NCBI GenBank assembly: GCA_900553675.1
Contig: USEH01000041.1
Coordinates: 1-13,590 of the forward strand
DNA: 13,590 nt
Reading direction: 5' to 3'
Source of the DNA: an uncultured Ruminococcus sp.
Lineage (GTDB): Bacteria; Bacillota; Clostridia; Oscillospirales; Ruminococcaceae
A model generated the notes under the pieces. The model had not been told where the DNA came from, searched no databases, and worked only from the letters and a program-made list of their open reading frames with translations. This document shows, piece after piece, positions 540-13,590 of this stretch. How positions within the stretch are numbered: position 1 is the first letter of the stretch; each line of letters starts with the position of its first letter. The position numbers and the translations under genes are program-made.

Positions 540-1268
540 ATGATTTTCACGGAAAAGGTAAAAACAGATTTTAAGGGACTTGTAAAGGGCGCTTTTGTTG
601 GCGATCGCGCAATTTTAGAGTATTTCGAGAACATAGCCGGCAGGCACGCCGACACCCTCGGCAACGGCGTAAACGATGTTTCGCGGACTCATTCTGCGTG
701 GATTTTGCTGGACTGGAAGGTTAAGGTTCTGCACCGCCCGACCTACGGCGAGGAGCTTATGGTTACAACATGGTCGCACAGCATAGAGCGCTGCTTTGGA
801 AACAGGTATTTCACTATTGAGGACGAGAATGGGCAGATATGCGTTGCGGCATCCTCAAAATGGGTGCTTATGGACACCGAAAAATGGTCTATAATACGCG
901 TTGATAATGAGCTGGCGGCAAAATTCGGCTCAGAGCCGGACAGAAACATACCGATAGACCCGTCTCTTGACAGACTTAAGCCTCCGACAGAGTACTCGTC
1001 GGCGGTGGAGTACACCGTTCAGCGGCGGGATATAGATTTGTTCGGTCATGTTCACAACACAAACTATCTCGATCTGGCATACGAAGCTCTGCCGGAAGAG
1101 GTCTACTCGCGAAGACCGTTTGACAGCGTTCGCATAACATATAAAAAAGAAATACGCCTCGGCGAAAAGCTCCTGCTAAAATACGCCTTTGCCGACGGCA
1201 AGCACACGGTTGCAATAACGAGCGAAGACGGCGGGGTGCTTCATTCTTTGATTGAGCTTTCGGATTGA
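540..1268 (+). CDS. Acyl-ACP thioesterase (FatA/FatB-like, double hotdog)
   Basis: A 242-residue cytosolic enzyme predicted to hydrolyse the thioester of acyl-acyl-carrier-protein and release a free fatty acid, ending or diverting chain elongation. The length and two-part layout fit the bacterial acyl-ACP thioesterase family (PF01643), with two hotdog folds at about 5-130 and 155-240. The first half has the long helix followed by sheet segments such as WKVKVLHRPTYGEEL. The second half carries the family signature DIDLFGHVHNTNY, with D166, H170 and N173, and E182 a little further on. These correspond to the Asp/Asn-His/Glu active-site region of the plant enzymes, though the plant Asn before the His appears as Gly here. 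The start at 540 has a GGAGG site 7-8 bases upstream. The family call is firm. Chain-length preference cannot be read from the sequence. Confidence 0.9.
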   Translation: MIFTEKVKTDFKGLVKGAFVGDRAILEYFENIAGRHADTLGNGVNDVSRTHSAWILLDWKVKVLHRPTYGEELMVTTWSHSIERCFGNRYFTIEDENGQICVAASSKWVLMDTEKWSIIRVDNELAAKFGSEPDRNIPIDPSLDRLKPPTEYSSAVEYTVQRRDIDLFGHVHNTNYLDLAYEALPEEVYSRRPFDSVRITYKKEIRLGEKLLLKYAFADGKHTVAITSEDGGVLHSLIELSD

Positions 1269-1321
1269 TTTTTGCGCATCGCGCACGCAGTGCGAATTTA
1301 TACAGGAACATTATAAATTTT

Positions 1322-1334
1322 GTAAACAATTTAC
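1322..1334 (+). promoter_or_regulatory. Short palindrome GTAAA-CAA-TTTAC before GH97 start
   Basis: A perfect 5-bp inverted repeat with a 3-base centre lies directly upstream of the GGAGG ribosome site (1337-1341) of the glycosidase gene. It sits in the 82-bp gap after the thioesterase gene, which also holds a 5-bp hairpin (1282-1294) and AT-rich sequence without a convincing -35/-10 pair. It resembles a small operator in position and symmetry and partly matches a catabolite-response element, but it lacks the central CG of that consensus. It could equally be chance in AT-rich sequence. Confidence 0.25.
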
Positions 1335-1350
1335 TTGGAGGAACATTATT

Positions 1351-3810
1351 ATGACAAAACGCACCCTATCATTGCTGCTGGCGGCGATTATGCTATCGCT
1401 TTGTATGCTGAGCGCCTGCGGAGGCGGAGAAGAAAAGCTCCCCGACCCCGACCTCAGCCTGAACGATCAGCCCAAAAACGAGATAACCGTAACGGCGGCG
1501 GAAGCATCTCATAAAAAATACGGCGAAGTCGAGCTTTTCGCGCTTGACGGGCTGACGACATCATCTCCCGACGGCGGCATAACCGCATATTTCTGGCAGG
1601 ACGCTCAAAGGCGCATTTACTACAGCGTAACTGCTGGAAAAGAGGAGGTAATCGAGCCTTCGCTTTTGGGACTTACCATGATAAATTCCGACCTTTCGGC
1701 AGGGATAGAGAGCATAACCTCCTACGACCGCGCCGATGTTGTCAAGGCGGAATATGAAACCTGCCTTACTGTTTTGCAAAAGGATGTTTCCTGCTTAGAT
1801 TATTGCATGGAGCGCGAAATCCATCTTAAAAAAGGCGAAGCGGGCATGACCATATTAGTCAGGGTCTACAACGACGGTTTTGCCTACAGATACACCGATG
1901 TAACGACCGGCAGAAAGGATAAAGAAACCGTTATAAGCGAGGCTTCGCAGATAGTCCTGCCCAAGGACACCGTAACCTTTGCCGGCGGCTACAGCGCAAC
2001 CTATGAATTCGACTATATCGAGCGCAAATACTCCGAGCTTGTAAACCACAGCGGAGTTTTCAACACCCCTGTCACCGCCTGCACCGGCAAGCATTGGCTT
2101 CTTTTCTCCGAATCGGACGTTTATGCAAACGATATCAGCTATGTTAAAAGCGTTTTGGGAACAAACTCCGGAAGCGGAGCGCTCAACTGGCAGTTCGGCT
2201 TTAAGCGCGACCCCATGAACGAGGTCACCGACGAGCTTGCAAGCCCCGGACACATAAGAATAACCGAGGTTGCAACCGTTCCTAACTTTGAAACGCCGTG
2301 GCGCGCGGCAATCATCACGGAGGATCTGAACGGACTTATCAATTCCGAACTGATAGATTCGCTCTGCCCCGAAGCAGACAGCAAGCTTTTCAAGAATACA
2401 GACTGGATAAAGCCCGGCAAGGTTTCGTGGTCGTGGTGGTCGGGCGGAGATCAGCATAACTATGATGTTCAGGTGGAGCATGTGGACTTCTCCTCAGAAT
2501 ACGGCTGGGAGTACTGCTGCTTAGACGCCGGCTGGCCATCATTTGAGGATAGAATTTCCGAGCTGTGCGATTACGCCGAGGATAAGGACGTTGGAATAAT
2601 ACTTTGGGTAAACTATTTGGAGCTGAAAACTCCCGAAGAAATCGAAAAGCTGTTTTCCAAGTGGGCAAAGTGGGGAGTAAAAGGCGTTAAAACCGACTAT
2701 TTTGAAAGCGACGATATCGAGGTTTTGGAGTCTATGCGAAACGTCGCGGAAATCGCAGCCAAGCACAAGCTGATGGTATATTACCACGGCTGTATAAATC
2801 CCTGCGGCGAAACAAGGACATACCCCAACATCATGTCGAGCGAAGCCGTTTTGGGCGAGGAGTTCAGAAAGTGGTCAACCTCGCCGTCTCCTAAAAACTG
2901 TCTTATGTACCCGTTTACAAGAAACATTGTAGGCTCGATGGACTACACTCCTGCCTGCATTGCAATAACCAAAACCGGCGAATCGGCAGGCTTCAGCCTT
3001 GCAAAGTCGGTGGTATACGAGTCGGCGTTGCAGCATTTTGCAAGCTCGGCATACGCTTTCCCAAGCTTTTTAGGACTGCCGTTTATCTCGCGTATACCGA
3101 CGGCGTGGAAAGAAACCAAGGTCATCGACGGCTACCCGGGCGAGCATATAACCATCATGCGCACCGACGGCAGCGATTATTATATCGGCTCGATGACCCT
3201 TGAAAAGCGCAAGGTTAGCGTCCCGCTTGATTTTCTGGGCGACGGCTCATACAACGCCTATATCTACTCCGACGACAGCGAGGGTGTGCTGACTCTTGAA
3301 GAAAAGACCGTAACTTCCTCCGACACTTTAAAGCTTGAGCTTTCAGATGTCGGCGGCGCGGCTGTTCTGATAACCAAGGATAAAATAAACACCGAGGTTG
3401 AGGAGTCGCCCACGTCCGACAAGGAGGGCTACACCTATTACGAGTGCGAGGACGGTAAGACCTCCGGCGAAGCGAGAATAGCGGATTCGTCAATGTGCAG
3501 TGGCGGCAAAAAGGTGGGCTACATCGGCAACGGCGGCTTTAACAAGCTGGAGATAACTGTAAAGGCAGAGAAGGCGGGAAGCTATGAAATGCTTATCTAC
3601 CTCTGTTCCGGTGAGTCGAGGAGCATGGATGTTACCGTCAACGGCAAAAAGTATGAGCTTTCAAACCTTTCAAGCCCCGGATTTGATATACCGGCTGAGA
3701 AGTCGCTGAGTGTAGAGCTTGAAAAGGGCGAGAATACAATAACATTCAGCTCGTCTGCAGGATATGCACCCGATCTGGACAGGATTGCGGTTGCGGATAA
3801 GGCGAAATAA
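1351..3810 (+). CDS. GH97-family glycoside hydrolase lipoprotein with C-terminal CBM6/35-like domain
   Basis: An 819-residue secreted lipoprotein. The start at 1351 follows GGAGG (1337-1341) and opens a lipoprotein signal: basic TKR, a hydrophobic stretch, then the lipobox LSAC with the lipidated Cys at residue 23. Residues ~45-330 fit the GH97 N-terminal beta-sandwich and ~335-610 the (beta/alpha)8 barrel, with the hallmark WSWWSGGDQHN at 360-370. A C-terminal barrel-associated sheet domain follows, then ~694-815 (YECEDG ... VGYIGNGG ... PDLDRIAV), which resembles a CBM6/CBM35-type sugar-binding module. D449 in KTDYF and E498 in SSEAVLGEE match in position the nucleophile Asp and acid/base Glu of retaining GH97 alpha-galactosidases, rather than the all-Glu set of inverting alpha-glucosidases. 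Substrate class is therefore inferred as alpha-galactoside or a related alpha-glycoside. No transporter or regulator gene accompanies it, and a terminator follows at once. Confidence 0.9.
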   Translation: MTKRTLSLLLAAIMLSLCMLSACGGGEEKLPDPDLSLNDQPKNEITVTAAEASHKKYGEVELFALDGLTTSSPDGGITAYFWQDAQRRIYYSVTAGKEEVIEPSLLGLTMINSDLSAGIESITSYDRADVVKAEYETCLTVLQKDVSCLDYCMEREIHLKKGEAGMTILVRVYNDGFAYRYTDVTTGRKDKETVISEASQIVLPKDTVTFAGGYSATYEFDYIERKYSELVNHSGVFNTPVTACTGKHWLLFSESDVYANDISYVKSVLGTNSGSGALNWQFGFKRDPMNEVTDELASPGHIRITEVATVPNFETPWRAAIITEDLNGLINSELIDSLCPEADSKLFKNTDWIKPGKVSWSWWSGGDQHNYDVQVEHVDFSSEYGWEYCCLDAGWPSFEDRISELCDYAEDKDVGIILWVNYLELKTPEEIEKLFSKWAKWGVKGVKTDYFESDDIEVLESMRNVAEIAAKHKLMVYYHGCINPCGETRTYPNIMSSEAVLGEEFRKWSTSPSPKNCLMYPFTRNIVGSMDYTPACIAITKTGESAGFSLAKSVVYESALQHFASSAYAFPSFLGLPFISRIPTAWKETKVIDGYPGEHITIMRTDGSDYYIGSMTLEKRKVSVPLDFLGDGSYNAYIYSDDSEGVLTLEEKTVTSSDTLKLELSDVGGAAVLITKDKINTEVEESPTSDKEGYTYYECEDGKTSGEARIADSSMCSGGKKVGYIGNGGFNKLEITVKAEKAGSYEMLIYLCSGESRSMDVTVNGKKYELSNLSSPGFDIPAEKSLSVELEKGENTITFSSSAGYAPDLDRIAVADKAK

Positions 3811-4448: not shown

Positions 4449-6224
4449 TTACTTTCTGGGATCGTCAACGATTCCGCGCTTAACATAGGTGGTGTGAAGC
4501 AGGTGATGAGCCTTTTCGGAACCGGGCTTGCCGAGATATTCTGCATAAAGAGCCTTTATAGCAGGATTCTCATGCGACTTTCTGATGGGAGCGTTCTTGT
4601 CGATATCGTAAAGAACCGCAGCGCGCTTTGCTCTGATGTCAACAGTGTTTCTGACATAGCCGGGCTGCTGGGGCTGTCCGCCGTTTACGCATCCGCCGGG
4701 GCATCCCATGATTTCGATGAACTGGTAATCAGCTTCGCCGGATTCAACCTTTTTAAGAAGCTCCTTGGCGTTTGCAAGACCGGAAGCTACTGCAACCTTA
4801 ACGTTCATGCCAGCAACCTCGTAGGTCTTTTCCTTGATTCCGGCAGTTCCTCTTACGTCAACAAAGTCAACGTTGGGAAGCTCTTCGCCGGTGAGAGTTT
4901 CAACAGCGGTACGAAGTGCTGCTTCCATAACACCGCCGGTTGCGCCGAAGATTGCGCCTGCGCCGGTGTAGATTCCCAAAGGCTCGTCGAACTTTTCGTC
5001 GGGCAGGGAGTTGAACTGGATTCCTGCGCGCTCAATCATTCTGCCAAGCTCGCGGGTGGTGAGGGAGATATCAACATCCGGAACACCGTTTGCAGCTTCG
5101 CCGTCTCTGCCTATCTCAAACTTCTTTGCGGTGCAGGGCATAATCGAAACGCAAACTATATCCTTGGGGTCGATGCCCATCTTTTCGGCATAGTAGCTCT
5201 TTGCGATTGCGCCGAACATCTGCTGAGGAGACTTGCAGCTTGAAAGATTGTCTGTAAGCTCGGGGAAGTAATGCTCGCAGTACTTAACCCATCCGGGCGA
5301 GCAGGAGGTGATAAGCGGAAGCTTGCCGCCATTTTTAACTCTTTCGATAAACTCGTTGGCCTCTTCCATGATGGTGAGGTCGGCGGAGAAGTTGGTGTCG
5401 AATACCTTGTCAAAGCCTAAGCGGCGCAAAGCTGCAACCATCTTGCCCTCAACGTCGGTTCCGATAGGAAGACCGAACATTTCGCCCAAGCCGGCTCTTA
5501 CAGCGGGAGCGGTCTGAACAATAACGTGCTTTTCGGGGTCTGCAATAGCTGCAAATACCTCGGTGGTAAAGTCCTTTTCGGCAAGAGCGCCGGTGGGACA
5601 AACCGCGATGCACTGTCCGCAGGAAACGCAGGAGGTATCGCCCAATCCCAGATCAAAGGGAGAACCGATGTGGCTGATAAATCCTCTTTCGTTGGGACCG
5701 ATAACGCCGATTCCCTGATACTTTTCGCATACTGCAACGCATCTGCGGCAGAGTATGCACTTGTTGTTATCTCTTATCATGTGGGGAGCGCTGTCGTCTA
5801 TCTCATACTTAACTCTTGCTCCGTCAAATCTGCCCTCGTCTTCAACCTTAAGGTCGCGGCAGAGCTTTTGCAGCTCGCAGTGACCGCTTCTTACGCAGGA
5901 GAGGCACTTTCTTTCATGGGTGGAAAGAATAAGCTCGAGAGTCTGACGTCTTGCGGCGATAACCTTGGGGGAGTTGGTGTAGATCTCCATGCCCTGAGAA
6001 ATCGGGAAGACGCAGGAGGCAACCAGTCTCTTGGGACCTAAAGCGGGTCCTCTCATTTCGGCTACCTCTGAAACGCAGATACGGCAGGCGCCGATCTCAT
6101 TGATCTCCTTTAAGAAGCAGAGGGTGGGGATTTCAACGCCGGCGAGTCTTGCAGCTTCTAAAACGGTTGTACCCTTGGGAGCTTCAATCGCCATGCCGTT
6201 AACTTTTATGTTTAACATATCCAT
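4449..6224 (-). CDS. hydA: HydA, catalytic subunit of NADH/ferredoxin-coupled [FeFe]-hydrogenase
   Basis: A 591-residue cytoplasmic subunit that interconverts H2 with protons and electrons at the H-cluster. Domains in order: plant-type [2Fe-2S] (C36, C47, C50, C71), a His-ligated [4Fe-4S] (H103, C107, C110, C116), two [4Fe-4S] (C156/159/162/166 and C199/202/205/209), then the H-cluster domain from about 230 and the small-subunit tail. H-cluster motifs are TSCSPGW (306-312), MPCTAKKFE (362-370) and EIMGCPGGCVNGGQP (504-518). Two differences from the textbook motifs are Ser309, where classical enzymes have the second Cys of TSCCP, and GGQP rather than GGGQP. The protein stops after the small-subunit domain and lacks the extra C-terminal [2Fe-2S] of the longer Thermotoga HydA. 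Start at 6224 follows AAGGAGG. With HydB and HydC it forms the electron-bifurcating or confurcating complex. The maturases HydE, HydF and HydG are not in the window. Confidence 0.95.
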   Translation of the reverse strand: MDMLNIKVNGMAIEAPKGTTVLEAARLAGVEIPTLCFLKEINEIGACRICVSEVAEMRGPALGPKRLVASCVFPISQGMEIYTNSPKVIAARRQTLELILSTHERKCLSCVRSGHCELQKLCRDLKVEDEGRFDGARVKYEIDDSAPHMIRDNNKCILCRRCVAVCEKYQGIGVIGPNERGFISHIGSPFDLGLGDTSCVSCGQCIAVCPTGALAEKDFTTEVFAAIADPEKHVIVQTAPAVRAGLGEMFGLPIGTDVEGKMVAALRRLGFDKVFDTNFSADLTIMEEANEFIERVKNGGKLPLITSCSPGWVKYCEHYFPELTDNLSSCKSPQQMFGAIAKSYYAEKMGIDPKDIVCVSIMPCTAKKFEIGRDGEAANGVPDVDISLTTRELGRMIERAGIQFNSLPDEKFDEPLGIYTGAGAIFGATGGVMEAALRTAVETLTGEELPNVDFVDVRGTAGIKEKTYEVAGMNVKVAVASGLANAKELLKKVESGEADYQFIEIMGCPGGCVNGGQPQQPGYVRNTVDIRAKRAAVLYDIDKNAPIRKSHENPAIKALYAEYLGKPGSEKAHHLLHTTYVKRGIVDDPRK

Positions 6225-6242: not shown

Positions 6243-8066
6243 TTACTTCTTTGAAATTGCCTTGAACTTACATACGCCCATGCAAGCGCCGCACTTAACG
6301 CACTTCTCGGGATCGATTTCGTGAGCGGGGAGCTTTTTGCCGGGAGCTATGTAGGTGGTCTTTGTGATCGCGGAAGCAGGACACTGGCGTGCGCACATGC
6401 CGCAGCCTATGCACTTTTCCTTGTCGATCTCGTATTTAAGCAGGCTCTTGCAGACGCCTGCGGGGCACTTTTTGTCAACAACGTGGGCAACATATTCGTC
6501 TCTGAAGAAGCGAAGTGTTGCTAAAACGGGGTTGGGAGCAGTCTGACCCAAGCCGCAGAGCGAGTTTTCCTTGATGTAGTAGCAGAGCTTTTCAAGCTCG
6601 TCGAGGTCTTCAAGGGTTCCGTTGCCCTTGGTTATCTTGTCGAGCATTTCAAGAAGTCTCTTTGTACCAACACGGCAGGGAGTGCACTTGCCGCAGGATT
6701 CGTCAACGGTAAATTCGAGGAAGAACTTAGCCATATCAACCATACAGTTGTCTTCGTCCATAACGATCATACCGCCCGAACCCATCATGCAGCCGATAGC
6801 GGTAAGGTTATCGTAGTCAACCTCGGTGTCGATAAGGCTTGCAGGGATGCATCCGCCGGAAGGTCCGCCGGTCTGGGCAGCCTTGAACTTTTTGCCGTTG
6901 GGAATGCCGCCGCCGATATCCTCGATGATCTCGCGCAGGGTGGTACCCATAGGAATTTCAACAAGTCCGGTGTGCTTGATCTTTCCGCCGAGGGCGAATA
7001 CCTTGGTACCCTTGGAGCGCTCGGTACCCATGGAAGCAAACCAGTCTGCACCCTTTAAGATGATCTGCGGGATGTTTGCAAATGTCTCAACGTTGTTTTC
7101 AACGGTAGGAGACTCATAAAGACCCTTAACTGCCGGATACGGAGGACGCGGTCTGGGCTCGCCTCTGTTGCCCTCGATAGAGGTCATAAGAGCGGTTTCC
7201 TCACCGCAGACGAATGCGCCCGCGCCGAGACGGATGTGAAGGTCGAAGTCAAAGCCGGAATCAAAGATGTTCTTGCCTAAAAGACCGTATTCTCTTGCCT
7301 GATCGATAGCAATCTGAAGTCTCTTAACAGCGATGGGGTATTCGGCTCTTACGTAAACATAGCCCTGAGTGGCACCGATAGCATAACCCGCTATTGCCAT
7401 AGCCTCGATAACGCTGTGGGGGTCGCCTTCGAGAACGGAACGGTCCATGAATGCGCCGGGGTCGCCTTCGTCGGCGTTGCAGACAACGTATTTCTGGGGA
7501 GCTTTATTGGGTGCGCAAAGGCTCCACTTTCTGCCGGTGGGGAATCCTCCTCCGCCTCTGCCTCTCAGACCGGAGTCTGTAACAACCTTGATGACCTCTT
7601 CGGGGGTCATTTCGGTAAGAACCTTGCCCAAAGCTGCATAGCCGTCCATAGCTATGTATTCTTCGATGTTTTCGGGGTCGATAACACCGCAGTTTCTTAA
7701 AACTACACGGTGCTGGGATTTGTAGAATGCGGTCTCGCCCAGAGAAACGTTGCCGATAACCTCCTCGGCAACCTCCTTGCCGGTGTCGGTGTAAGCCAGA
7801 CGCTTAACAACTCTACCCTTTAAGAGATGCTCGGAAACTATTTCATCAACGTCTTCGGGGGTTACACGGCTGTAAAATGTACCGTCGGGGTAAACAATAA
7901 CAACAGGACCTAATGCGCAAAGACCGAAGCAGCCGGTCTGAACCATCTTGATTTCATCTTCAAGACCGTTCTTTGCAATGCTTTCATGGAAAGCAGCCTG
8001 TATTGCCTTACTGCCCGAGGAGGTACAACCGGTGCCGCCGCAGATAAGTACATGTGCACGAATCAT
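6243..8066 (-). CDS. hydB: HydB, NuoF-like flavin and NADH-binding subunit of bifurcating hydrogenase
   Basis: A 607-residue cytoplasmic subunit carrying FMN and the NAD(H) site, where electrons are split or merged between NADH, ferredoxin and HydA. Three parts are visible. First is a thioredoxin-fold [2Fe-2S] domain (C9, C14, C46, C50). Next is the NuoF core, with the GRGGGGFPTG FMN/NADH loop at 169-178, NADEGDPGAF at 197-206, and the [4Fe-4S] ligands in SCGKCTPCRVG (C458, C461, C464) plus C504. Last is a ferredoxin-like tail with two [4Fe-4S] motifs (C552/555/558/562 and C589/592/595/599). This N- and C-terminally extended form separates HydB of trimeric hydrogenases from ordinary NuoF. An extra pair, C534 and C539, sits just before the tail and may bind metal. 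Start at 8066 has an AAAGGAAAG site. hydA follows after 18 bp. Confidence 0.96.
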   Translation of the reverse strand: MIRAHVLICGGTGCTSSGSKAIQAAFHESIAKNGLEDEIKMVQTGCFGLCALGPVVIVYPDGTFYSRVTPEDVDEIVSEHLLKGRVVKRLAYTDTGKEVAEEVIGNVSLGETAFYKSQHRVVLRNCGVIDPENIEEYIAMDGYAALGKVLTEMTPEEVIKVVTDSGLRGRGGGGFPTGRKWSLCAPNKAPQKYVVCNADEGDPGAFMDRSVLEGDPHSVIEAMAIAGYAIGATQGYVYVRAEYPIAVKRLQIAIDQAREYGLLGKNIFDSGFDFDLHIRLGAGAFVCGEETALMTSIEGNRGEPRPRPPYPAVKGLYESPTVENNVETFANIPQIILKGADWFASMGTERSKGTKVFALGGKIKHTGLVEIPMGTTLREIIEDIGGGIPNGKKFKAAQTGGPSGGCIPASLIDTEVDYDNLTAIGCMMGSGGMIVMDEDNCMVDMAKFFLEFTVDESCGKCTPCRVGTKRLLEMLDKITKGNGTLEDLDELEKLCYYIKENSLCGLGQTAPNPVLATLRFFRDEYVAHVVDKKCPAGVCKSLLKYEIDKEKCIGCGMCARQCPASAITKTTYIAPGKKLPAHEIDPEKCVKCGACMGVCKFKAISKK

Positions 8067-8139: not shown

Positions 8140-8511
8140 TCAGTTGTTGTTTGCTCCGATGGTGTATTCGGTGATAACCTTGCCGCCCTTTAAATGCTCT
8201 TCAACAACGCGTCTTGCCTTGGCGGAGTCCATCTTAACGTAGGTGGTCTTTTCCTTGCCGGCTTCAAATACCTCAACAACCGGCTCGAACTGGCAGATGC
8301 CTATGCAGCCCGTCTGAGAAACGGTTACCTTGTCCTCAAGACCTGCCTTGTTTACTTCCTCAACAAAGGTGTTAAGAACAGGTCTTGCGCCCGCGGCGAT
8401 ACCGCAGGTTGCCATTCCGACTACAACTCTCACGTCGTTGGAGCCTTCTCTTAAAACTACCTTGTCCTTCATTCTGTCTTTAATTGCCTGTAGTTCAGCT
8501 AAAGATTTCAT
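8140..8511 (-). CDS. Thioredoxin-fold [2Fe-2S] protein of the hydrogenase operon (HydD-like)
   Basis: A 123-residue cytoplasmic protein related to the N-terminal domain of HydB and the C-terminal half of NuoE. It has a short helical N-terminus, then the ferredoxin-type thioredoxin fold with GMATCGIAAG (C36) and SQTGCIGIC (C69, C73). The usual four-Cys set has a Cys five residues before C36. Here that region reads VVVGMAT, so only three cysteines remain in the whole protein. Either the cluster is held by a non-Cys fourth ligand or the cluster is altered or lost. Its place before hydB and hydA recalls the small accessory subunit called HydD in Acetobacterium-type operons, so a role as an electron-carrying or structural subunit is inferred. 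The start at 8511 has a GAAAGGAT site. Its codon choice and position group it with hydB and hydA rather than with the signalling genes upstream. Confidence 0.85.
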   Translation of the reverse strand: MKSLAELQAIKDRMKDKVVLREGSNDVRVVVGMATCGIAAGARPVLNTFVEEVNKAGLEDKVTVSQTGCIGICQFEPVVEVFEAGKEKTTYVKMDSAKARRVVEEHLKGGKVITEYTIGANNN

Positions 8512-8528
8512 AGTATTTATCCTTTCTT

Positions 8529-8565
8529 AAAGCGCGAGATGTGCGCTTTAGCATTAGTTTAATGC
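8529..8565 (-). repeat. Tandem intergenic hairpins at the signalling/structural gene boundary
   Basis: The 72-bp gap between the second HATPase gene and the thioredoxin-fold gene holds two perfect inverted repeats. In transcript order the first is GCATTA-AAC-TAATGC (8565 to 8551, 6-bp arms) and the second AAAGCGC-ACATCTC-GCGCTTT (8549 to 8529, 7-bp arms). The second ends just before the ribosome site of the next gene. Neither has a terminal U-tract. They could mark an mRNA processing or stabilising point, or control translation of the downstream genes. Confidence 0.55.
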
Positions 8566-8583: not shown

Positions 8584-9147
8584 TTATTCCTGCGGATTTC
8601 CGCCGGAATACTGCTCCTGCATATAGTCGCGTATCCAGCTTATAACCTCAAAGCTGTTTAACGGGACGTCTTCTAAAACCTCCCTCAGCTCTTTTGTTTT
8701 AAGCTCGCAGAGGGTTTTACTGTCGCGTGTGTGCAAAAAGTGGAAATCCCGTTCGGGATGTCCCTGAATAAGAGTGCAGATGCTTTCGGCAGCGTCCCCA
8801 AGCGGGGTGAAATCGATGTGATTTTTAAAGAAAACCGCCGTTACCGTTGTTCCGTGATCGTCGGGATATTCGCGCTCCCACTTTGAAACAACCTCCATGC
8901 TGCCGCCGGTCATTTCAGCCTCCATCTTTAATAAGGGAAGCCCCATTCCAACCTTGCGGGTGGTTCGTGTTGTGTAAAACGGGTCGGTGACGGTTCTGCG
9001 GATTTCTTCGCTCATGCCGCAGCCGTTGTCGCGGATTGTAAGAGTCAGCTTATCGCCAAGCTCATCAATAAATATTTCGGTGAGAGATGCGCCCGCCTTG
9101 ACCGAGTTTTCGGCGATGTCGAGAATGTTTAAAGACAGTTCTTTCAT
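8584..9147 (-). CDS. Stand-alone HATPase_c (GHKL) protein of the hydrogenase operon
   Basis: A 187-residue soluble protein whose first ~115 residues are a histidine-kinase-type ATP-binding domain: N-box DIAENSVKAGA (10-20, N14), G1 box DNGCGM (40-45), F-box DPFYTTR (55-61), and G2 box KVGMGLPLLK (65-74). A closing HGTTVTAVF strand follows. The remaining ~70 residues are an extension of unknown fold. There is no dimerisation/phosphoacceptor (HisKA) helix with the H-E-x-x-[RT] pattern and no sensor domain, so any phosphate must go to a partner protein. It could be a protein kinase, an ATPase switch or an ATP-binding scaffold. The start at 9147 has a GGGGAGA site inside the end of the PHP gene, and the two genes are separated by a single base (TGA-T-ATG), which implies coupled translation. 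The context suggests it works with the HydS-like protein. Confidence 0.85.
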   Translation of the reverse strand: MKELSLNILDIAENSVKAGASLTEIFIDELGDKLTLTIRDNGCGMSEEIRRTVTDPFYTTRTTRKVGMGLPLLKMEAEMTGGSMEVVSKWEREYPDDHGTTVTAVFFKNHIDFTPLGDAAESICTLIQGHPERDFHFLHTRDSKTLCELKTKELREVLEDVPLNSFEVISWIRDYMQEQYSGGNPQE

Positions 9148-9148
9148 A

Positions 9149-9880
9149 TCATTCTCCCCTTAGATGTCCAAACAGCCTTTTTCTTACCAGAGTGGAGGAA
9201 TAAGGCTCGTCGTCAAGCTCGAAATACTCGCGCTTTTCCTTTATGTCCCACAAGTAGTGAGCGTCTGAGCTCATTATAACCTTTTTGTCCTGCAAATTAT
9301 GCTTTGAGATAATCGCTTCAGCCCTTTCGGGGTCGTGGAACTCTATGATGTCAAAGCGCGGCGTCGGAGGGAAAAATCCTAAAACCGCAAGAATACCGTT
9401 TGCCTCCCTGTCTATGTGAGCGGGATAACAGATTCCTCTGAACTTTCGCACCATATCGGGAACTTCGTCGATAGTAACCTCGGTTGCGTTTGAAAGGAGG
9501 TTATCCTCATGACCGATAACCTCGTCATTCTCATCAAGGATAAGCTGCTGCCCGAAGATATCGATTCGGTTTTTAATTGGTATTCTTTTTTTGTCAACCG
9601 CGCCGCTGAACGCCATAGCGTCGTCAAGCTGTTCAAAAAGGCAGACAACGTGGATGTCCTCGGCGGTGGTAAGCTCCATTCCCGCAATCGGAATGATGCC
9701 GTTTTTCTTAGCCGCCGCAAAGAAAGCGGGGCAGTTTTTGCAGGTATTATGGTCGGTAAGAGCCATAATGTTCAAGCCGTTCAACACGCCCATTCCTGCA
9801 ATGTTGTTGGGAGTTGAATCATCATCTCCGCAGGGGGAAAGGCAGGAGTGGATATGCAGATCGTAGTAATATCTGTTCAT
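9149..9880 (-). CDS. PHP-domain metal-dependent phosphoesterase
   Basis: A 243-residue soluble protein of the PHP (polymerase and histidinol phosphatase) family, which uses a di- or trinuclear metal site to hydrolyse phosphoesters. Metal-binding positions visible are H9 and H11 in DLHIHS, D19, D43/H44 in LTDHNT, E69, H77, H155 (YPAHIDR), and D206/H208 (SSDAHY), so the active site looks complete. Unusually for a hydrolase there are four cysteines near the metal site, C13, C17, C47 and C50, the last two as CKNC, which might sense redox state or bind metal. Substrate is unknown: a nucleotide, phosphosugar or phosphoprotein are all possible. The ATG at 9880 has no recognisable ribosome site in the 17 bp after the preceding stop, and the DLHIHS motif excludes a later start, so translation probably depends on coupling. 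It may remove the phosphate placed by one of the flanking HATPases. Confidence 0.85.
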   Translation of the reverse strand: MNRYYYDLHIHSCLSPCGDDDSTPNNIAGMGVLNGLNIMALTDHNTCKNCPAFFAAAKKNGIIPIAGMELTTAEDIHVVCLFEQLDDAMAFSGAVDKKRIPIKNRIDIFGQQLILDENDEVIGHEDNLLSNATEVTIDEVPDMVRKFRGICYPAHIDREANGILAVLGFFPPTPRFDIIEFHDPERAEAIISKHNLQDKKVIMSSDAHYLWDIKEKREYFELDDEPYSSTLVRKRLFGHLRGE

Positions 9881-9897
9881 GATATCAGAATCTGCGC

Positions 9898-10221
9898 TCA
9901 GAGCTTTTCTTTGAGCGTGCAGGCGATTTCATACGCAGGCTCGGAGGAGGAAAGTATGTTTACTCCCTTTGCATTGGCGGTGTCGATAACGTCCTGCGCG
10001 ACTTCAACGCCCTCCGCCAGTATTATGCAGGCGGTATCGGCAAGCGAAGCCACTGCAAGGATGTTTATGTTAGACATAATCGTAATCCAGGCATTGTCCG
10101 CCTGAGCTCTTCCCATAACCCAGCTAAGAAGATCTCCGATATAAACTCCGTTTATTTCGCGGTCGCCGTCGGGCAGGGCGATTGTCTTAAAGCCGCAGCC
10201 GGCAAGTTGGTTAACAGTCAT
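9898..10221 (-). CDS. DRTGG-domain protein 2
   Basis: A 107-residue soluble protein that fits the DRTGG domain, a small alpha/beta regulatory fold also found in phosphotransacetylase-type and CBS-containing proteins. Visible elements are a first strand and turn (TIALPDGDREINGVYIGDLLSWVMG), a central ITIMSNINILAVASLADTACIILAEG, and a closing VNILSSSEPAYEIACTL. The layout parallels the other DRTGG protein in this operon (GxDxxSxV ... AxxxxxxxIxxVxS), but identity is low, so they are old paralogues. No catalytic residues are evident, and ligand binding or partner control is the likely role. Its ATG shares one base with the stop of the preceding gene (TAATG at 10219-10223), and an AAGGAGGA ribosome site lies inside that gene, so the two should be made in fixed ratio. 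Confidence 0.8.
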   Translation of the reverse strand: MTVNQLAGCGFKTIALPDGDREINGVYIGDLLSWVMGRAQADNAWITIMSNINILAVASLADTACIILAEGVEVAQDVIDTANAKGVNILSSSEPAYEIACTLKEKL

Positions 10222-11516
10222 TACACGGTTTCCTCCTTGTTGGTAAGCTTGTTAAGCATTGCTTCAAGCTCCTTATTGTGAAGCAGCACGCACTGCGATT
10301 TATCCGCGCCGCAGGTTACAACGTCCTCCGCGAATGCTCTGCAATTGGGAGCGCCGCAGGAGCCGCAGTCGATTCCCGGCAGCTCGTTTTTAAGCTTCTG
10401 AATGTCCGCCATCATACGCAGCGACTGCGCCATATTGTCGCTCAGCCGTGATATCGGGCGGTATTCGGGAAGCTCGTCGAAAAGGTAGGTATCCGGAATG
10501 TAGCTTTGCTCATCTTTAGGAAGCTGATTGCGTGACACCGGAAGGTATCGCCTGAGAGTTTGCAGCCTTGCCTTTGCAATAAAGGGGTTCTGCACCGTCA
10601 GCACTCCGCCAACGCATCCGCCCGAGCAGGCGTTAAGCTCGATAAATTCGAGATTAGGGATATTTCCGTTTTCGATCTGATCCAAAACTCTTATAACATT
10701 GTCAATACCGTCGGCTGCAAGGTAATTGTCGTTAAACAAAGCCGTTGCTTCTCCGCCAGTGCTTGCCCAGCCTATTCCTATCATACCGGAATGGCAAAGG
10801 GGCGTATCCTGTGTTTCGTGCTTCATCTTGCTTATAAGCATAAAGTAAAGGTCGCTTATCGAGACTACAACATCAACATTGCTTTTGTAAGCCGCAAAGC
10901 CGTTTTTAACATAGCTTGCCTTTGCAGGGCAGGGAGATATAAAGCACACGCCTATATCCTCGTCTTTAAGCTCGGGATGAGCTTCCTTTGCCCTAAGCCT
11001 TGCAAGTCTTGCGGCAACCTCCATCGGAGGAAGAATGTGAATGATATTGTCGCTCAGCGATGGGAACCTAAGACCTATAAGCCGCAGTATTACCGGACAA
11101 GCCGAGCTTATCGCCGGCTTTTTAACTCCCTCGGTTTTAAGATAAAGCCTTGTGTATGCAGAAACCAGCTCAGCGGCAGCCGAAACCTCAAAAACGTCGT
11201 CAAATCCGATTTTGTACAAACCGTCTATAACGTAATCAACGTCGTCAAGATTGTCAAACTGACCATAAAGAGTCGGAGCGGGAAGGGCTATCTTCCATTT
11301 AAAGCGTTCCATAGCGTCCAGCTTTGAGCAGGTTGCCTTTTTGGCTTTATTCGGGCAGACACGAATACATTCTCCGCAGTCGATACATCTTTCCTGATTT
11401 ATCACCGCGCGGTGATCGCTGATGCGTATTGCCTCGGTCGGACAGTGCTTTAAGCAGGTTGTGCAGCCGTTGCATTTTTCAGCGTCTAAATAAACCGAAT
11501 GCTCGTATTTGTTCAT
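10221..11516 (-). CDS. HydS-like putative sensory [FeFe]-hydrogenase-related iron-sulfur protein
   Basis: A 431-residue soluble protein related to [FeFe]-hydrogenase but with altered motifs. It has two N-terminal [4Fe-4S] motifs (C15/18/21/25 and C44/47/50/54), an H-cluster-type domain (about 75-320), then after a linker a C-terminal Fe-S motif like that of RnfB (C384, C387, C392, C409). All four H-cluster anchoring Cys are kept: SSACP (C140), SPCPAK (C196) and ACSGGC (C297, C301). The Cys that relays protons in TSCCP enzymes is Ala139, and the GGGQP loop is replaced by VGGVLT. Known sensory (group C/D) hydrogenases share the ACP motif and turn over slowly, so an H2- or redox-sensor role is inferred. 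The PAS domain of Thermotoga-type HydS is absent. An AAAGGAGGGGG ribosome site precedes the ATG at 11516. It lies between a HATPase and a DRTGG gene, its likely partners. Confidence 0.87.
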   Translation of the reverse strand: MNKYEHSVYLDAEKCNGCTTCLKHCPTEAIRISDHRAVINQERCIDCGECIRVCPNKAKKATCSKLDAMERFKWKIALPAPTLYGQFDNLDDVDYVIDGLYKIGFDDVFEVSAAAELVSAYTRLYLKTEGVKKPAISSACPVILRLIGLRFPSLSDNIIHILPPMEVAARLARLRAKEAHPELKDEDIGVCFISPCPAKASYVKNGFAAYKSNVDVVVSISDLYFMLISKMKHETQDTPLCHSGMIGIGWASTGGEATALFNDNYLAADGIDNVIRVLDQIENGNIPNLEFIELNACSGGCVGGVLTVQNPFIAKARLQTLRRYLPVSRNQLPKDEQSYIPDTYLFDELPEYRPISRLSDNMAQSLRMMADIQKLKNELPGIDCGSCGAPNCRAFAEDVVTCGADKSQCVLLHNKELEAMLNKLTNKEETV

Positions 11517-11543
11517 AATACCCCCTCCTTTACATCTGCAAAA

Positions 11544-11966
11544 TTAAGTAAGATTCACCACCATAGTAACCGTTGTTCCCACGCCGACCTCAGATTCTAT
11601 CTTCATATCGTCGGTATAGCGCTTCATGTTGGGCAGACCCATTCCTGCGCCAAAGCCTAAGCTGCGCACATTGTCCGGAGCGGTGGAGTAGCCCTCACGC
11701 ATGGCAAGAGAAATATCCTTTATGCCCGGACCGTGGTCTGACAAAACGATTATTATCTGGTCTTCGGTCACCGTAACGTCGGCGCTTCCGCCGTTTGCGT
11801 GGATGACCATGTTGATTTCGCCTTCGTACATGGCGATAGATACTCTTCTGATAATTTCGGGGCCGATGCCAAGCTGCCTTAAATTCTTCTTCACCTGAAC
11901 CGAAGCCTGACCGGCTGAGGTGAAATCGGAGCCGTCAACATCGAAATGGAAGGTTAAGCCATCCAT
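11544..11966 (-). CDS. RsbW/SpoIIAB-like HATPase (anti-sigma-factor-type kinase fold)
   Basis: A 140-residue soluble ATP-binding protein of the GHKL superfamily, and short like the serine kinases RsbW and SpoIIAB. N-terminal FHFDVDGSDFTSAGQA and a helix (VQVKKNLRQLGI) lead to the N-box YEGEINMVIHA (E48, N52). Then come SADVTVTEDQIIIVLSDHGPGI with the G1 box D77-H-G-P-G, the G2 box GFGAGMGLPNMK (104-115), and the closing GVGTTVTMVV. There is no phosphoacceptor His, so it would act on a separate protein or as an ATP-dependent switch. No sigma factor or STAS-type antagonist is in the window, so the usual anti-sigma circuit is not evident. Its ATG overlaps the stop of the DRTGG gene upstream by one base (TAATG at 11964-11968), with only a weak ribosome site, implying translational coupling. 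The HydS-like gene follows after 27 bp. Confidence 0.87.
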   Translation of the reverse strand: MDGLTFHFDVDGSDFTSAGQASVQVKKNLRQLGIGPEIIRRVSIAMYEGEINMVIHANGGSADVTVTEDQIIIVLSDHGPGIKDISLAMREGYSTAPDNVRSLGFGAGMGLPNMKRYTDDMKIESEVGVGTTVTMVVNLT

Positions 11967-12316
11967 TATTTAACTTCTTCCGCCTTTAATCCGTTTGTGT
12001 ATAGTATTCCGCAGGCTTCATACATACGCTTGTCGGTGGCAAGCAGAACTATTCCGCTTTCCTCGGCAAGGCTTATCATCTCTTCGTTCGGCTTTTTGGA
12101 ACGAACGAAAACTATACAGCGCATATCCATCATTTCGGCGGTTCTTATAACCTGTGAGTTGACAAGTCCGGTAAGAAGCACAGCCTGATCCTTAACGTAT
12201 GCCAGAACGTCGCTCATCATGTCGCTTCCGCAGGCGGAGTAAACATGAGAGCCCAAAAGCTCCTCACCGCAGACGGTGCTGGCATTCAGAAGTTCCTTGA
12301 TTTTTGATATTTTCAT
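11966..12316 (-). CDS. DRTGG-domain protein 1
   Basis: A 116-residue soluble protein of the DRTGG family. I chose the ATG at 12316 because GGGGAGGAAG lies 6-9 bases upstream. An in-frame GTG at 12334 would overlap that ribosome site and add only six residues. The sequence has an N-terminal helix (MKISKIKELLNAST), a strand and loop with GSHVYSACGSDMMSDVLAYV, then LLTGLVNSQVIRTAEMMDMRCIVFV, and the closing GIVLLATDKRMYEACGIL. Three cysteines (C16, C29 and the Cys of MRCIVF) and several Met are present, but no recognised metal motif. It precedes the RsbW-like HATPase with a one-base stop/start overlap, so the pair is probably made together. A ligand-binding or adaptor role in the sensing module is inferred, and no enzymatic activity is suggested by the sequence. 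Confidence 0.8.
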   Translation of the reverse strand: MKISKIKELLNASTVCGEELLGSHVYSACGSDMMSDVLAYVKDQAVLLTGLVNSQVIRTAEMMDMRCIVFVRSKKPNEEMISLAEESGIVLLATDKRMYEACGILYTNGLKAEEVK

Positions 12317-12350: not shown

Positions 12351-12848
12351 TCAGAAACCGTATTTTGCTAAAATGCCGTCAACATCGTCAACAGTCAGAC
12401 GTCCATAAACATCGTCGTTGACGGTAAGAACGGGAGCAAGTCCGCAGGCACCTATGCAGCGGCAGGCAGTAAGAGAAAATCTGCCGTCGGCAGTGCATTC
12501 GTCCCCACCGATGCCGAGCTTTTCGCTTATCTTGTCAAAGATATTGCCGGAGCCCTTAACATAGCAGGCGGTACCCAAGCAAACAGAGATGTTGTATTCT
12601 CCCTTGGGAACCAGAGTGAACTGAGCGTAGAACGTTGCCACTCCGTAAACCTTCTCCATCGGAATGCCCAGCTCACGCGCGATGAGCGACTGGATTTCGA
12701 TAGGAAGGTAGCCGTAAATGCCCTGAGCCTTCTGCATTATGGGCATAAGGCAGCCCTTTTCTTGCTTGTTTTCGTTGATAAACTGCATAAGCTCGGCTTC
12801 TTGCTCGGGTGTGCCTCTGAAGGGAATGGACGTAATTTTGTTACCCAT
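12351..12848 (-). CDS. hydC: HydC, NuoE-like [2Fe-2S] subunit of bifurcating hydrogenase
   Basis: A 165-residue cytoplasmic subunit that carries electrons between the HydB flavin site and the remaining complex. The N-terminal ~80 residues are the NuoE helical bundle with MPIMQKAQGIYGYLP and VYGVATFYAQF. The C-terminal half is the thioredoxin-fold [2Fe-2S] domain with ligands C90 and C95 (CLGTAC) and C131 and C135 (CIGAC). An extra C129 lies just before them. Length and motifs are typical of HydC/NuoE. The ATG at 12848 follows AAGGAGG closely, and it is the first gene after the strong promoter at 12971-12999. In this operon it is separated from its partners hydB and hydA by about 4 kb of signalling genes, an arrangement that would expose the sensing module to the same transcript. 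Confidence 0.94.
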   Translation of the reverse strand: MGNKITSIPFRGTPEQEAELMQFINENKQEKGCLMPIMQKAQGIYGYLPIEIQSLIARELGIPMEKVYGVATFYAQFTLVPKGEYNISVCLGTACYVKGSGNIFDKISEKLGIGGDECTADGRFSLTACRCIGACGLAPVLTVNDDVYGRLTVDDVDGILAKYGF

Positions 12849-12970: not shown

Positions 12971-12999
12971 ATTATAACATATTTTTATCTCAATATCAA
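12971..12999 (-). promoter_or_regulatory. Promoter of the hyd operon
   Basis: On the - strand, TTGATA (12994-12999) and TATAAT (12971-12976) are spaced by 17 bp, with TG one base before the -10. This is near-consensus for the housekeeping sigma-A factor, so regulation would have to come from repression, an upstream site or the leader rather than from an alternative sigma factor. Start of transcription is expected near 12964. Confidence 0.85.
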
Positions 13000-13011: not shown

Positions 13012-13050
13012 CAAAATCGCACTAAAAAAATGGTCAAAATCGCACCAAAA
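13012..13050. repeat. Two 16-bp direct repeats upstream of the hyd promoter
   Basis: CAAAATCGCACTAAAA (13012-13027) and CAAAATCGCACCAAAA (13035-13050) differ at one base and start 23 bp apart. Seen from the hyd operon they lie about 13 and 36 bp upstream of the -35 element, a usual place for activator sites. They also lie upstream of the nth promoter. The repeated unit is not a palindrome and does not match the Rex, Fur or CcpA consensus patterns I know. Confidence 0.7.
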
Positions 13051-13177: not shown

Positions 13178-13590
13178 ATGGAAAAGAGCATAAAGGAGTT
13201 AAAGCAAAGGGCGGTTGAAATCGTCGACGCCCTCGAAAAAGTATACCCCGAGGCGCAATGCTCGCTTGTTTACATAAAGCCCTACGAGCTTTTGATAGCC
13301 ACTCGTCTTTCGGCGCAGTGCACCGACGCGCGCGTGAACATCGTCACAAAGGATTTATTTGCAAAGTATCCCACCCTCGAATCCTTTGCCGCAGCTGACG
13401 TTAAGGACGTTGAGGAGATAGTCCGCCCCTGCGGGCTTTTCAGAACCAAGGCAAAAAGCATTGTCGAGCTTGCAAACGTGCTTGTAAACCAGTACGGCGG
13501 AGAGCTTCCCGACACCTTAGAGGAGCTTATAAAGCTGCCAGGCATAGGCAGAAAGACAGCCAATCTTATAATGGGAGATGTTTACCACAA
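13178..13590 (+). CDS. nth: Endonuclease III (partial, runs off the window)
   Basis: The first 137 codons of a base-excision repair DNA glycosylase/AP lyase that removes oxidised pyrimidines from DNA. YELLIATRLSAQCTD (36-50) matches the conserved N-terminal region of Nth, and the helix-hairpin-helix LPGIGRKTAN (120-129) contains the catalytic Lys (K126, equal to K120 of E. coli Nth). The catalytic Asp, which lies 18 residues further on in E. coli, and the C-terminal [4Fe-4S] Cys set are beyond the window edge. The ATG at 13178 follows AAAGGATGG with a rather long spacer. It is transcribed divergently from the hyd operon and has no obvious functional tie to it, although its Fe-S cofactor makes shared redox control conceivable. 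Confidence 0.93.
   Translation, partial: MEKSIKELKQRAVEIVDALEKVYPEAQCSLVYIKPYELLIATRLSAQCTDARVNIVTKDLFAKYPTLESFAAADVKDVEEIVRPCGLFRTKAKSIVELANVLVNQYGGELPDTLEELIKLPGIGRKTANLIMGDVYH

What the first reader, a model, noticed from the sequence alone, without database searches (positions are those of the whole stretch)
9149..12316. Candidate H2/redox signalling module inside a bifurcating hydrogenase operon
Six contiguous genes (DRTGG, RsbW-like HATPase, HydS-like iron-sulfur protein, DRTGG, PHP phosphoesterase and HATPase, running on to 8584) separate hydC from hydB and hydA. One set holds a likely H2 sensor, two ATP-binding kinase-type folds without phosphoacceptors, a phosphoesterase and two small regulatory domains: the parts of a phosphorylation switch without a classical response regulator. 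Two of the junctions share a TAATG stop/start, which implies fixed stoichiometry. Similar gene sets are known near clostridial hydrogenases and have been proposed to be sensory, but as far as I know the circuit (who phosphorylates what, and the output) is undescribed.
Basis: partly seen in the sequence, partly recalled or inferred. Interest (0 to 1): 0.75.

Follow-up and report, generated by a model that had tools for sequence, protein, structure and literature searches.

The report
Conserved hydrogen-sensing switch beside a hydrogenase
Six small genes inside a hydrogenase operon form a conserved signalling cassette in gut and other anaerobic bacteria, in which a hydrogenase-like sensor appears to feed a kinase-type switch through two small docking proteins, giving a testable idea of how such sensors pass on their signal.

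Summary
The same order holds in the 80 closest genome loci as far as their contigs reach. In 299 genomes of one relative's phylum, HydS is in 120 and HATPase-1 in 119 of those, 118 within 6 kb.

Natural fusions join DRTGG-1 to HATPase-1 (9 loci), HATPase-1 to HydS (1), HydS to DRTGG-2 (2) and PHP to HATPase-2 (6). In four HydS-less loci HATPase-1 carries a CBS pair instead, so HydS looks like an exchangeable sensor.

HATPase-1 is RsbT/SpoIIAB-like with the catalytic Glu and Asn kept. HATPase-2 is MutL-like, not a histidine kinase. Both DRTGG paralogues share a near-invariant D-x-x-S and a Thr.

Best reading: an H2/redox partner switch resembling RsbR/S/T, with DRTGG in place of STAS and PHP in place of PP2C. 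Linkage, fusions and residues are shown; phosphotransfer, direction and output are inferred. A sensory role for group D HydS is already published; my searches found no account of the module.

The parts
12351..12848 (-). hydC (NuoE-like [2Fe-2S] subunit), first gene of the operon in this clade
   Evidence: PF01257 168.5 bits
11966..12316 (-). DRT1: stand-alone DRTGG protein; carries the near-invariant D32-x-x-S35 and T49
   Evidence: PF07085 27.3 bits; conservation; nearest solved fold AF1212 2ioj
11544..11966 (-). HAT1: RsbT/SpoIIAB-like HATPase with Glu48 and Asn52 of the catalytic site
   Evidence: TIGR01925 60.4 bits, below its 135-bit cut-off; SpoIIAB fold for a relative; residues; RsbT-type closer than SpoIIAB
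10221..11516 (-). HYDS: group D (M2e-type) [FeFe] hydrogenase, putative H2/redox sensor
   Evidence: PF02906 100.6 bits, 2x Fer4, FeS; H-cluster Cys kept, C299->A139, M353->S194
9898..10221 (-). DRT2: second DRTGG protein, D30-x-x-S33 and T47
   Evidence: PF07085 29.7 bits; fused to HYDS in two relatives
9149..9880 (-). PHP-family metal-dependent phosphoesterase, metal ligands complete
   Evidence: PF02811 42.4 bits; H9, H11, D43, H44, E69, H77, H155, D206, H208 kept in 188-193 of 193
8584..9147 (-). HAT2: MutL-like GHKL ATPase, N-box D10-xxx-N14-S-xx-A-x-A
8527..8551 (-). inverted repeat (10-pair stem) between HAT2 and the TRX gene; possible RNA processing or attenuation hairpin
   Evidence: listed there on the + strand; read on the - strand it has no T run after it
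8140..8511 (-). TRX: thioredoxin-like [2Fe-2S] ferredoxin-type protein
   Evidence: PF01257 23.0 bits, just below its 24.8 cut-off; NF041612 40.1 bits, cut-off 150
6243..8066 (-). hydB (NuoF-like flavin subunit with N-terminal TRX-like and C-terminal 2x[4Fe-4S] domains)
4449..6224 (-). hydA, catalytic [FeFe] hydrogenase subunit
   Evidence: NF040763 group A6, 886 bits, cut-off 765
12971..12999 (-). sigma-70-like promoter match TTGATA-17-TATAAT before hydC
   Evidence: 11 of 12 matches, TG before the second hexamer (consensus match only, 14 sites found against 8.9 in shuffles)
13012..13044 (-). two direct copies of TGCGATTTTG upstream of the promoter match, possible operator
   Evidence: exact copies not seen in the 72 relatives' upstream regions examined

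Best explanation
The six genes encode one signalling module that reports H2 or redox state. HydS, a slow hydrogenase with an altered proton path and an extra C-terminal FeS cluster, acts as sensor. It is physically coupled to HAT1 and to DRT2. HAT1 is an RsbT-like protein kinase. The two DRTGG proteins take the place that STAS proteins have in RsbR/RsbS/RsbT modules: DRT2 with HydS corresponds to RsbR (sensor plus scaffold), DRT1 to RsbS. HAT1 phosphorylates the near-invariant Ser (or Thr) of the DRTGG proteins when the HydS clusters change state; PHP removes the phosphate; released HAT1, or the MutL-like ATPase HAT2 driven by it, carries the signal to the output. SHOWN: linkage, co-occurrence, fusions, exchange of HydS for CBS domains, conserved catalytic and metal residues, predicted folds. 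INFERRED: H2 as ligand, physical contact, slow turnover here, phosphorylation and its site, PHP as its phosphatase, direction, output (transcription of hyd genes in some lineages, or direct control of HydABC).
For: (1) HydS and HAT1 co-occur in 119 genomes (120 with HydS, 126 with HAT1, of 299); 101 genomes have HydS, DRT1, HAT1 and PHP.
(2) Fusions in nature, among 230 loci: DRT1-HAT1 9, PHP-HAT2 6, HYDS-DRT2 2, HAT1-HYDS 1. DRT1-HAT1 fusions are also common in the protein database: the 120 listed hits (of 3294) are 221-279 aa and match 87-100% of the fused query.
(3) Sensor exchange: 4 loci in 3 genomes (L211-L214) lack HydS and have tandem CBS fused to HAT1; none of these genomes gave a group D-level HydS hit.
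(4) HAT1 keeps Glu48 in 207 of 208 and Asn52 in 208 of 208 and scores higher against RsbT-type than SpoIIAB proteins in 30 of 31 representatives. The four RsbT-type loci compared have STAS and/or PP2C neighbours, recognised by eye.
(5) D-x-x-S and T are 98-100% conserved in both DRTGG paralogues (123 and 164 sequences); in the modelled relative Ser36 lies in the first turn of a helix that follows a strand.
(6) In 4 of 4 loci where HAT1-HydS stands apart, an OmpR-type response regulator lies 71-576 bp from HAT1, with a histidine kinase in 3 of 4.
(7) A rex-like gene on the same strand within 4.5 kb in 22 loci and a LuxR-type HTH gene in 6.
Against: No phosphotransfer has been measured. The near-invariant Ser/Thr could bind a ligand instead. 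DRT1 is missing in 12 and PHP in 8 of the 120 genomes with HydS, so neither is strictly needed (cases of contig ends were not separated). Five genomes have an extra HydS with DRT2 and hydABC but no HAT1 or PHP in view (L150, L153, L155, L156, L160). PHP enzymes mostly cut nucleotides or nucleic acids (recalled). The clearest outputs (response regulator, LuxR HTH, rex) are in relatives; the window itself shows no Rex site above chance. The Ser/Thr signature is set against only a few outgroup domains, one of which also has Ser.
Confidence: 0.5

Rival explanations
1. The DRTGG proteins are nucleotide sensors, not phosphoacceptors. As in CBS-DRTGG pyrophosphatases, DRTGG (with CBS where present) binds adenine nucleotides such as AMP or Ap4A, PHP makes or destroys the nucleotide, and HAT1/HAT2 read it; HydS adds redox input.
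For: DRT1 of a relative matches the CBS-DRTGG regulatory domain of C. [quoted passage not shown] CBS appears in the HydS slot. The PHP protein's NCBIfam hits include 3',5'-nucleoside bisphosphate phosphatase, far below its cut-off (31.3 of 400 bits). The near-invariant D-x-x-S and T could line a pocket.
Against: The GDR-type motif region of ordinary DRTGG domains is changed in both paralogues. The HydS forms show no CBS in the operon (window). HAT1 is an RsbT-type kinase with its catalytic Glu and Asn intact.
Confidence: 0.25
2. The module acts directly on HydABC after translation (assembly, gating or activity control), for example through the MutL-like clamp ATPase HAT2, and has no transcriptional output.
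For: hydB is in the locus in 56 of 67 survey loci with enough flank, on the same strand in 52 and on the opposite strand in 4. HAT2 resembles clamp ATPases more than kinases. No regulator gene found among the window's operon proteins.
Against: The core occurs with no hydABC in the fetched stretch (L211, L212), and HAT1-HydS occurs beside a two-component system. rex-like and LuxR-type genes neighbour the module in relatives.
Confidence: 0.17
3. Not signalling: an accessory redox or maturation cluster carried along with the hydrogenase, conserved because operons are inherited whole.
For: Genes in long operons are often co-inherited; HydS still has all its FeS ligands.
Against: Fusions along the chain, exchange of HydS for CBS, migration of HAT1-HydS into a two-component locus, and joint presence or absence over 299 genomes.
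Confidence: 0.08

Closest known systems
Group D (M2e) putative sensory [FeFe] hydrogenase, TamHydS of Thermoanaerobacter mathranii (PMC8163306)
   Same: Two N-terminal [4Fe-4S] motifs, H-domain with C299 lost and M353 changed to Ser/Thr, C-terminal Cx2Cx4Cx16C, no PAS, gene near a HATPase and a group A bifurcating hydrogenase.
   Different: The passages I read name a HATPase and an AraC regulator as neighbours and leave signal transfer open; here a fuller partner set is defined and shown to be conserved, fused and exchangeable.
Group C1/C2/C3 sensory [FeFe] hydrogenases of HydDB (PMC5037454)
   Same: Hydrogenase domain used as proposed H2 sensor linked to kinase, chemotaxis or phosphatase outputs.
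   Different: Those are linked to histidine kinases, chemotaxis proteins or Ser/Thr phosphatases; here no PAS and no PP2C, but DRTGG, an RsbT-like HATPase and PHP.
RsbR/RsbS/RsbT partner-switch (stressosome) modules
   Same: RsbT-like kinase, two paralogous small scaffold proteins, one of them coupled to a sensor, and a phosphatase-type enzyme encoded together (analogy; RsbR/S/T biology recalled).
   Different: No STAS domain and no PP2C; DRTGG and PHP stand in those places.
CBS-DRTGG regulatory unit of CBS-pyrophosphatase (PDB 3l31)
   Same: DRTGG fold; CBS joins the module in the HydS-less form.
   Different: DRTGG here is separate or fused to HAT1 or HydS, with near-invariant Ser and Thr, and no pyrophosphatase domain was found in the operon.

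Membership tests
Group D (M2e) [FeFe] hydrogenase | two N-terminal [4Fe-4S] binding motifs | tested here: met
   8 Cys present in 203 of 203 sequences
Group D (M2e) [FeFe] hydrogenase | four H-cluster cysteines kept | tested here: met
   C140 and C196 203 of 203, C297 and C301 202 of 203 (one gap)
Group D (M2e) [FeFe] hydrogenase | proton-path Cys299 lost | tested here: met
   A139 in the window; A 149, S 47, T 5, N 1, H 1 of 203
Group D (M2e) [FeFe] hydrogenase | Met353 exchanged for Ser/Thr | tested here: met
   S194 in the window; S 127, T 74, A 2 of 203; feature from PMC8163306
Group D (M2e) [FeFe] hydrogenase | C-terminal Cx2Cx4Cx16C and no PAS domain | tested here: met
   C384, C387, C392, C409 in at least 201 of 203; no PAS hit in the window protein
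Group D (M2e) [FeFe] hydrogenase | binds H2 at a working H-cluster | not testable with these tools
   needs a spectroscopic or activity assay
RsbT/SpoIIAB-type protein kinase (HAT1) | GHKL fold of SpoIIAB type with catalytic Glu and Mg-binding Asn | tested here: met
   1til rmsd 1.9 for a modelled relative; E48 207 of 208, N52 208 of 208; residue roles recalled
RsbT/SpoIIAB-type protein kinase (HAT1) | phosphorylates a partner protein | not testable with these tools
   bench assay needed
RsbRST stressosome module | STAS partner proteins encoded in the operon | tested here: not met
   no STAS hit among the ten operon proteins of the window; DRTGG instead
RsbRST stressosome module | PP2C-type phosphatase | tested here: not met
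   PHP instead
Classical two-component system | HisKA/DHp histidine and receiver domain in the module | tested here: not met
   no HisKA or Response_reg hit in the window operon; a response regulator next to HAT1-HydS in four relatives, a histidine kinase in three of them
MutL-like GHKL ATPase (HAT2) | near whole-length match to the MutL ATPase domain and (E/D)xxxNSxxAxA N-box | tested here: met

The most novel reading that the evidence does not exclude
A new class of bacterial partner-switching system in which DRTGG domains replace STAS domains as the phosphorylated scaffold of an RsbT-like kinase, PHP replaces PP2C, and the input domain is exchangeable: a group D hydrogenase for H2/redox, or a CBS pair for adenylate energy state. 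In HydS-bearing lineages it is the missing signal path of group D sensory hydrogenases.
Probability: 0.35. Interest if true: 0.85.

Novelty: new variant of a known kind. Interest (0 to 1): 0.68.

Why it matters
H2 sets the energy limits of fermentation, syntrophy and gut and rumen gas metabolism, yet how anaerobes with [FeFe] hydrogenases sense it is largely unproven. Group D hydrogenases were proposed as sensors without a known way to pass on the signal. A defined, conserved partner set with named residues makes the question directly testable with a few purified proteins. If DRTGG really replaces STAS, it also opens a new branch of partner-switching signalling that can be recognised by sequence in many genomes.

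Tried and rejected
Rejected: HAT2 as a histidine kinase lacking its phosphoacceptor domain (fold and N-box point to MutL; histidine-kinase ATPase domains are also in the lists, lower down). Rejected: TAATG overlap as evidence of fixed stoichiometry (not conserved). Rejected: a Rex box in the window (best match 4 mismatches; 39% of the pooled shuffles do as well or better), although 34 of 73 upstream regions (the window's included in the 73) have a match with at most 3 mismatches against about 7% of shuffles (mononucleotide shuffles only). Rejected: that the set is confined to hydrogenase operons. Considered: 'bifurcating'. The hydA model that fits best is named NADH-dependent group A6, but hydB has both the N-terminal TRX-like and C-terminal FeS domains; bifurcation was not tested. 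Inconclusive: the HAT1/RsbT/SpoIIAB tree is rooted by one very long branch, so closeness to RsbT rests on scores against four RsbT-type and four SpoIIAB proteins. The relative placing of DRT1 and HAT1 in the fusion model is not readable (linker 116-131 under pLDDT 50). Led nowhere: PDB sequence search for DRT2 (no hit); for PHP the only hit, 7onc (named SAKe6BE, short stretch, E 0.00053), was not informative. Ser conservation against outgroups rests on five CBS-pyrophosphatase DRTGG domains and one short segment, poorly aligned; of the four with a letter in that column one has Ser.


Full report
WHAT IS THERE. The window holds an operon-like run on the - strand from hydC (12848) to hydA (4449), with a good sigma-70-like promoter match at 12999-12971 (11 of 12). 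Gaps are short, and two junctions are TAATG overlaps.

HOW CONSERVED. A scan of species-representative genomes gave 556 confirmed relatives of which the best 80 were kept, HydS 59-79% identical to the window's. In 80 of 80 the order is hydC-DRT1-HAT1-HYDS-DRT2-PHP-HAT2-TRX-hydB-hydA with no gene missing inside the run; genes not seen lie beyond a contig end. In 299 genomes drawn from the phylum of one relative, 148 had a hydrogenase-type hit at E<=1e-30. At the strength of group D, HydS is in 120, DRT1 in 117, HAT1 in 126 and PHP in 116 (cut-offs mine). HydS and HAT1 coincide in 119 genomes, 118 of them within 6 kb; HydS and PHP in 112 (106 near); HydS and DRT1 in 108 (103 near); 101 genomes hold all four. 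Fisher p is between 4.8e-51 and 1.1e-73, without correction for relatedness. The commonest order outside the window's clade is DRT1-HAT1-HYDS-DRT2-PHP-hydC-HAT2-TRX-hydB-hydA, so hydC probably changed place in the window's clade. Of 67 survey loci with at least 4 kb before and 7.5 kb after HydS, HAT1 is in 62, DRT2 in 63, HAT2 in 58, PHP in 55, DRT1 in 60 at a loose cut-off (which can take a gene in the DRT2 place for DRT1) and 52 at a strict one; hydB is on the same strand in 52, on the opposite strand in 4, absent in 11.

FUSIONS. Among 230 loci, one ORF carries DRT1+HAT1 in 9, PHP+HAT2 in 6, HYDS+DRT2 in 2 (L126, L136) and HAT1+HYDS in 1 (L196). A protein search with one DRT1-HAT1 fusion returned 3294 hits; the 120 listed are 221-279 aa and match 87-100% of the fused query. 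The fusions link the chain DRT1-HAT1-HYDS-DRT2 and, separately, PHP-HAT2. This is the strongest computed hint of physical contact.

THE SENSOR IS EXCHANGEABLE. L211, L212, L213 and L214 (genomes G160, G127 twice, G100) have DRT1 and HAT1 but no HydS, and HAT1 there starts with a tandem CBS pair (CBS confirmed by Pfam for L212 and L214, read from sequence in L211 and L213). L211, L212 and L214 also keep DRT2, PHP and HAT2. In L214 hydC-TRX-hydB-hydA follow; in L211 and L212 no hydABC lies in the 19 kb fetched. No group D-level hit was found in these three genomes. Conversely, in four genomes HAT1-HYDS has left the rest: L098, L117, L119 and L123 have an OmpR-type response regulator 71-576 bp from HAT1, and three of them a histidine kinase (L098 is a 4 kb piece). 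L119 also has CheW and a [FeFe]-hydrogenase/MCP chemoreceptor. In the same genomes DRT1-DRT2-PHP-HAT2 lie elsewhere (L224-L227), with rex upstream of DRT1 in L225-L227 (59-146 bp). L216 and L217 have DRT1-HAT1-DRT2-HAT2 near hydABC without HydS or PHP. A rex-like gene is on the same strand within 4.5 kb in 22 loci, a LuxR-type HTH gene in 6, an RseC-like gene in 15.

HOW IT LIKELY WORKS. The anatomy resembles RsbR/RsbS/RsbT (recalled): a kinase, two paralogous scaffold proteins, one of them joined to the sensor, and a phosphatase-type enzyme. Here DRTGG stands where STAS stands, PHP where PP2C stands, and HydS is the sensor. I propose that H2 or ferredoxin-level reduction of HydS is felt by HAT1 through contacts seen in the fusions, changes phosphorylation of the DRTGG Ser/Thr, is reset by PHP, and is passed on by HAT1 or HAT2. 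Only the parts list, linkage, residues and predicted folds are shown; phosphorylation, direction and output are inference. A rival in which DRTGG binds adenine nucleotides is serious, because CBS-DRTGG units do so in pyrophosphatases and CBS occurs in the HydS-less form.

AGAINST. DRT1 is missing from 12 and PHP from 8 of 120 HydS genomes. Five genomes have an extra HydS with DRT2 and hydABC but without HAT1 or PHP in view (L150, L153, L155, L156, L160). The TAATG overlaps are not conserved. No Rex site stands out in the window.

PRIOR ART. Land et al. 2020 (PMC8163306, passages) proposed group D HydS as sensors, noted a flanking HATPase and an AraC regulator, and asked how the signal is passed. 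PMC3608648 (passages) notes a histidine kinase and a group D hydrogenase upstream of the bifurcating genes in Thermoanaerobacter. HydDB (PMC5037454, passages) lists group C1-C3 sensors; the term 'group D' does not occur in it. PMC8924675, PMC11837493, PMC3990059, PMC3492117, PMC4374699 and PMC5886521 were read in passages; the passages shown do not describe a DRTGG, RsbT-like and PHP set with a hydrogenase. PMC5886521 lists a PHP-domain gene (Tsac_1856) with a putative Rex site; whether it belongs to this module I did not check. The one paper that holds both 'hydrogenase' and 'DRTGG' (PMC10102598) was seen in the listing only. The searches listed no paper that by its title and abstract start joins DRTGG, RsbT-type kinases and hydrogenases; subscription papers are mostly outside that library.

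Noticed in passing
window 13012-13044 (-): Two direct copies of TGCGATTTTG lie just upstream of the operon promoter match; exact copies are absent from the upstream regions of the 72 relatives examined. They might be an operator.
   Followed up: partly
window 8527-8551 (-): A 10-pair inverted repeat sits between the signalling genes and TRX-hydB-hydA without a T run on the - strand, perhaps a processing hairpin that separates expression of the two halves.
   Followed up: no
upstream of hydC in L001-L080: Rex-like operators (at most 3 mismatches) stand in 34 of 73 upstream regions, the window's included in the 73, against about 7% of mononucleotide shuffles; the window's own best match is at chance level.
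   Followed up: partly
L119: A [FeFe]-hydrogenase/FeS/MCP chemoreceptor, CheW, OmpR-type regulator and multi-domain histidine kinase surround HAT1-HydS: a candidate H2 chemotaxis or signalling locus.
   Followed up: partly
L143, L147, L157, L162, L163, L184, L191: These loci show no TRX gene by the models used; six of the seven (not L143) carry a small LuxR-type HTH gene about 4.1-4.4 kb from HydS on the same strand, a possible transcriptional output.
   Followed up: partly
L218: DRT1 runs into the middle of HAT1, and HydS and PHP appear only as short pieces: an apparently decayed copy of the module beside full-length hydC, hydB and hydA.
   Followed up: no
window 540-3807 (+) and 13178-13588 (+): Acyl-ACP thioesterase-like gene, a GH97 glycoside hydrolase gene, and the start of an HhH-GPD DNA repair gene.
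   Followed up: partly
L017, L018, L020, L023, L027, L030, L033, L035, L041, L057: Records titled Atopobiaceae, Coriobacteriales, Coriobacteriaceae or actinobacterium carry the same operon as the Clostridia at 69-73% HydS identity, which may hint at transfer between phyla.
   Followed up: no
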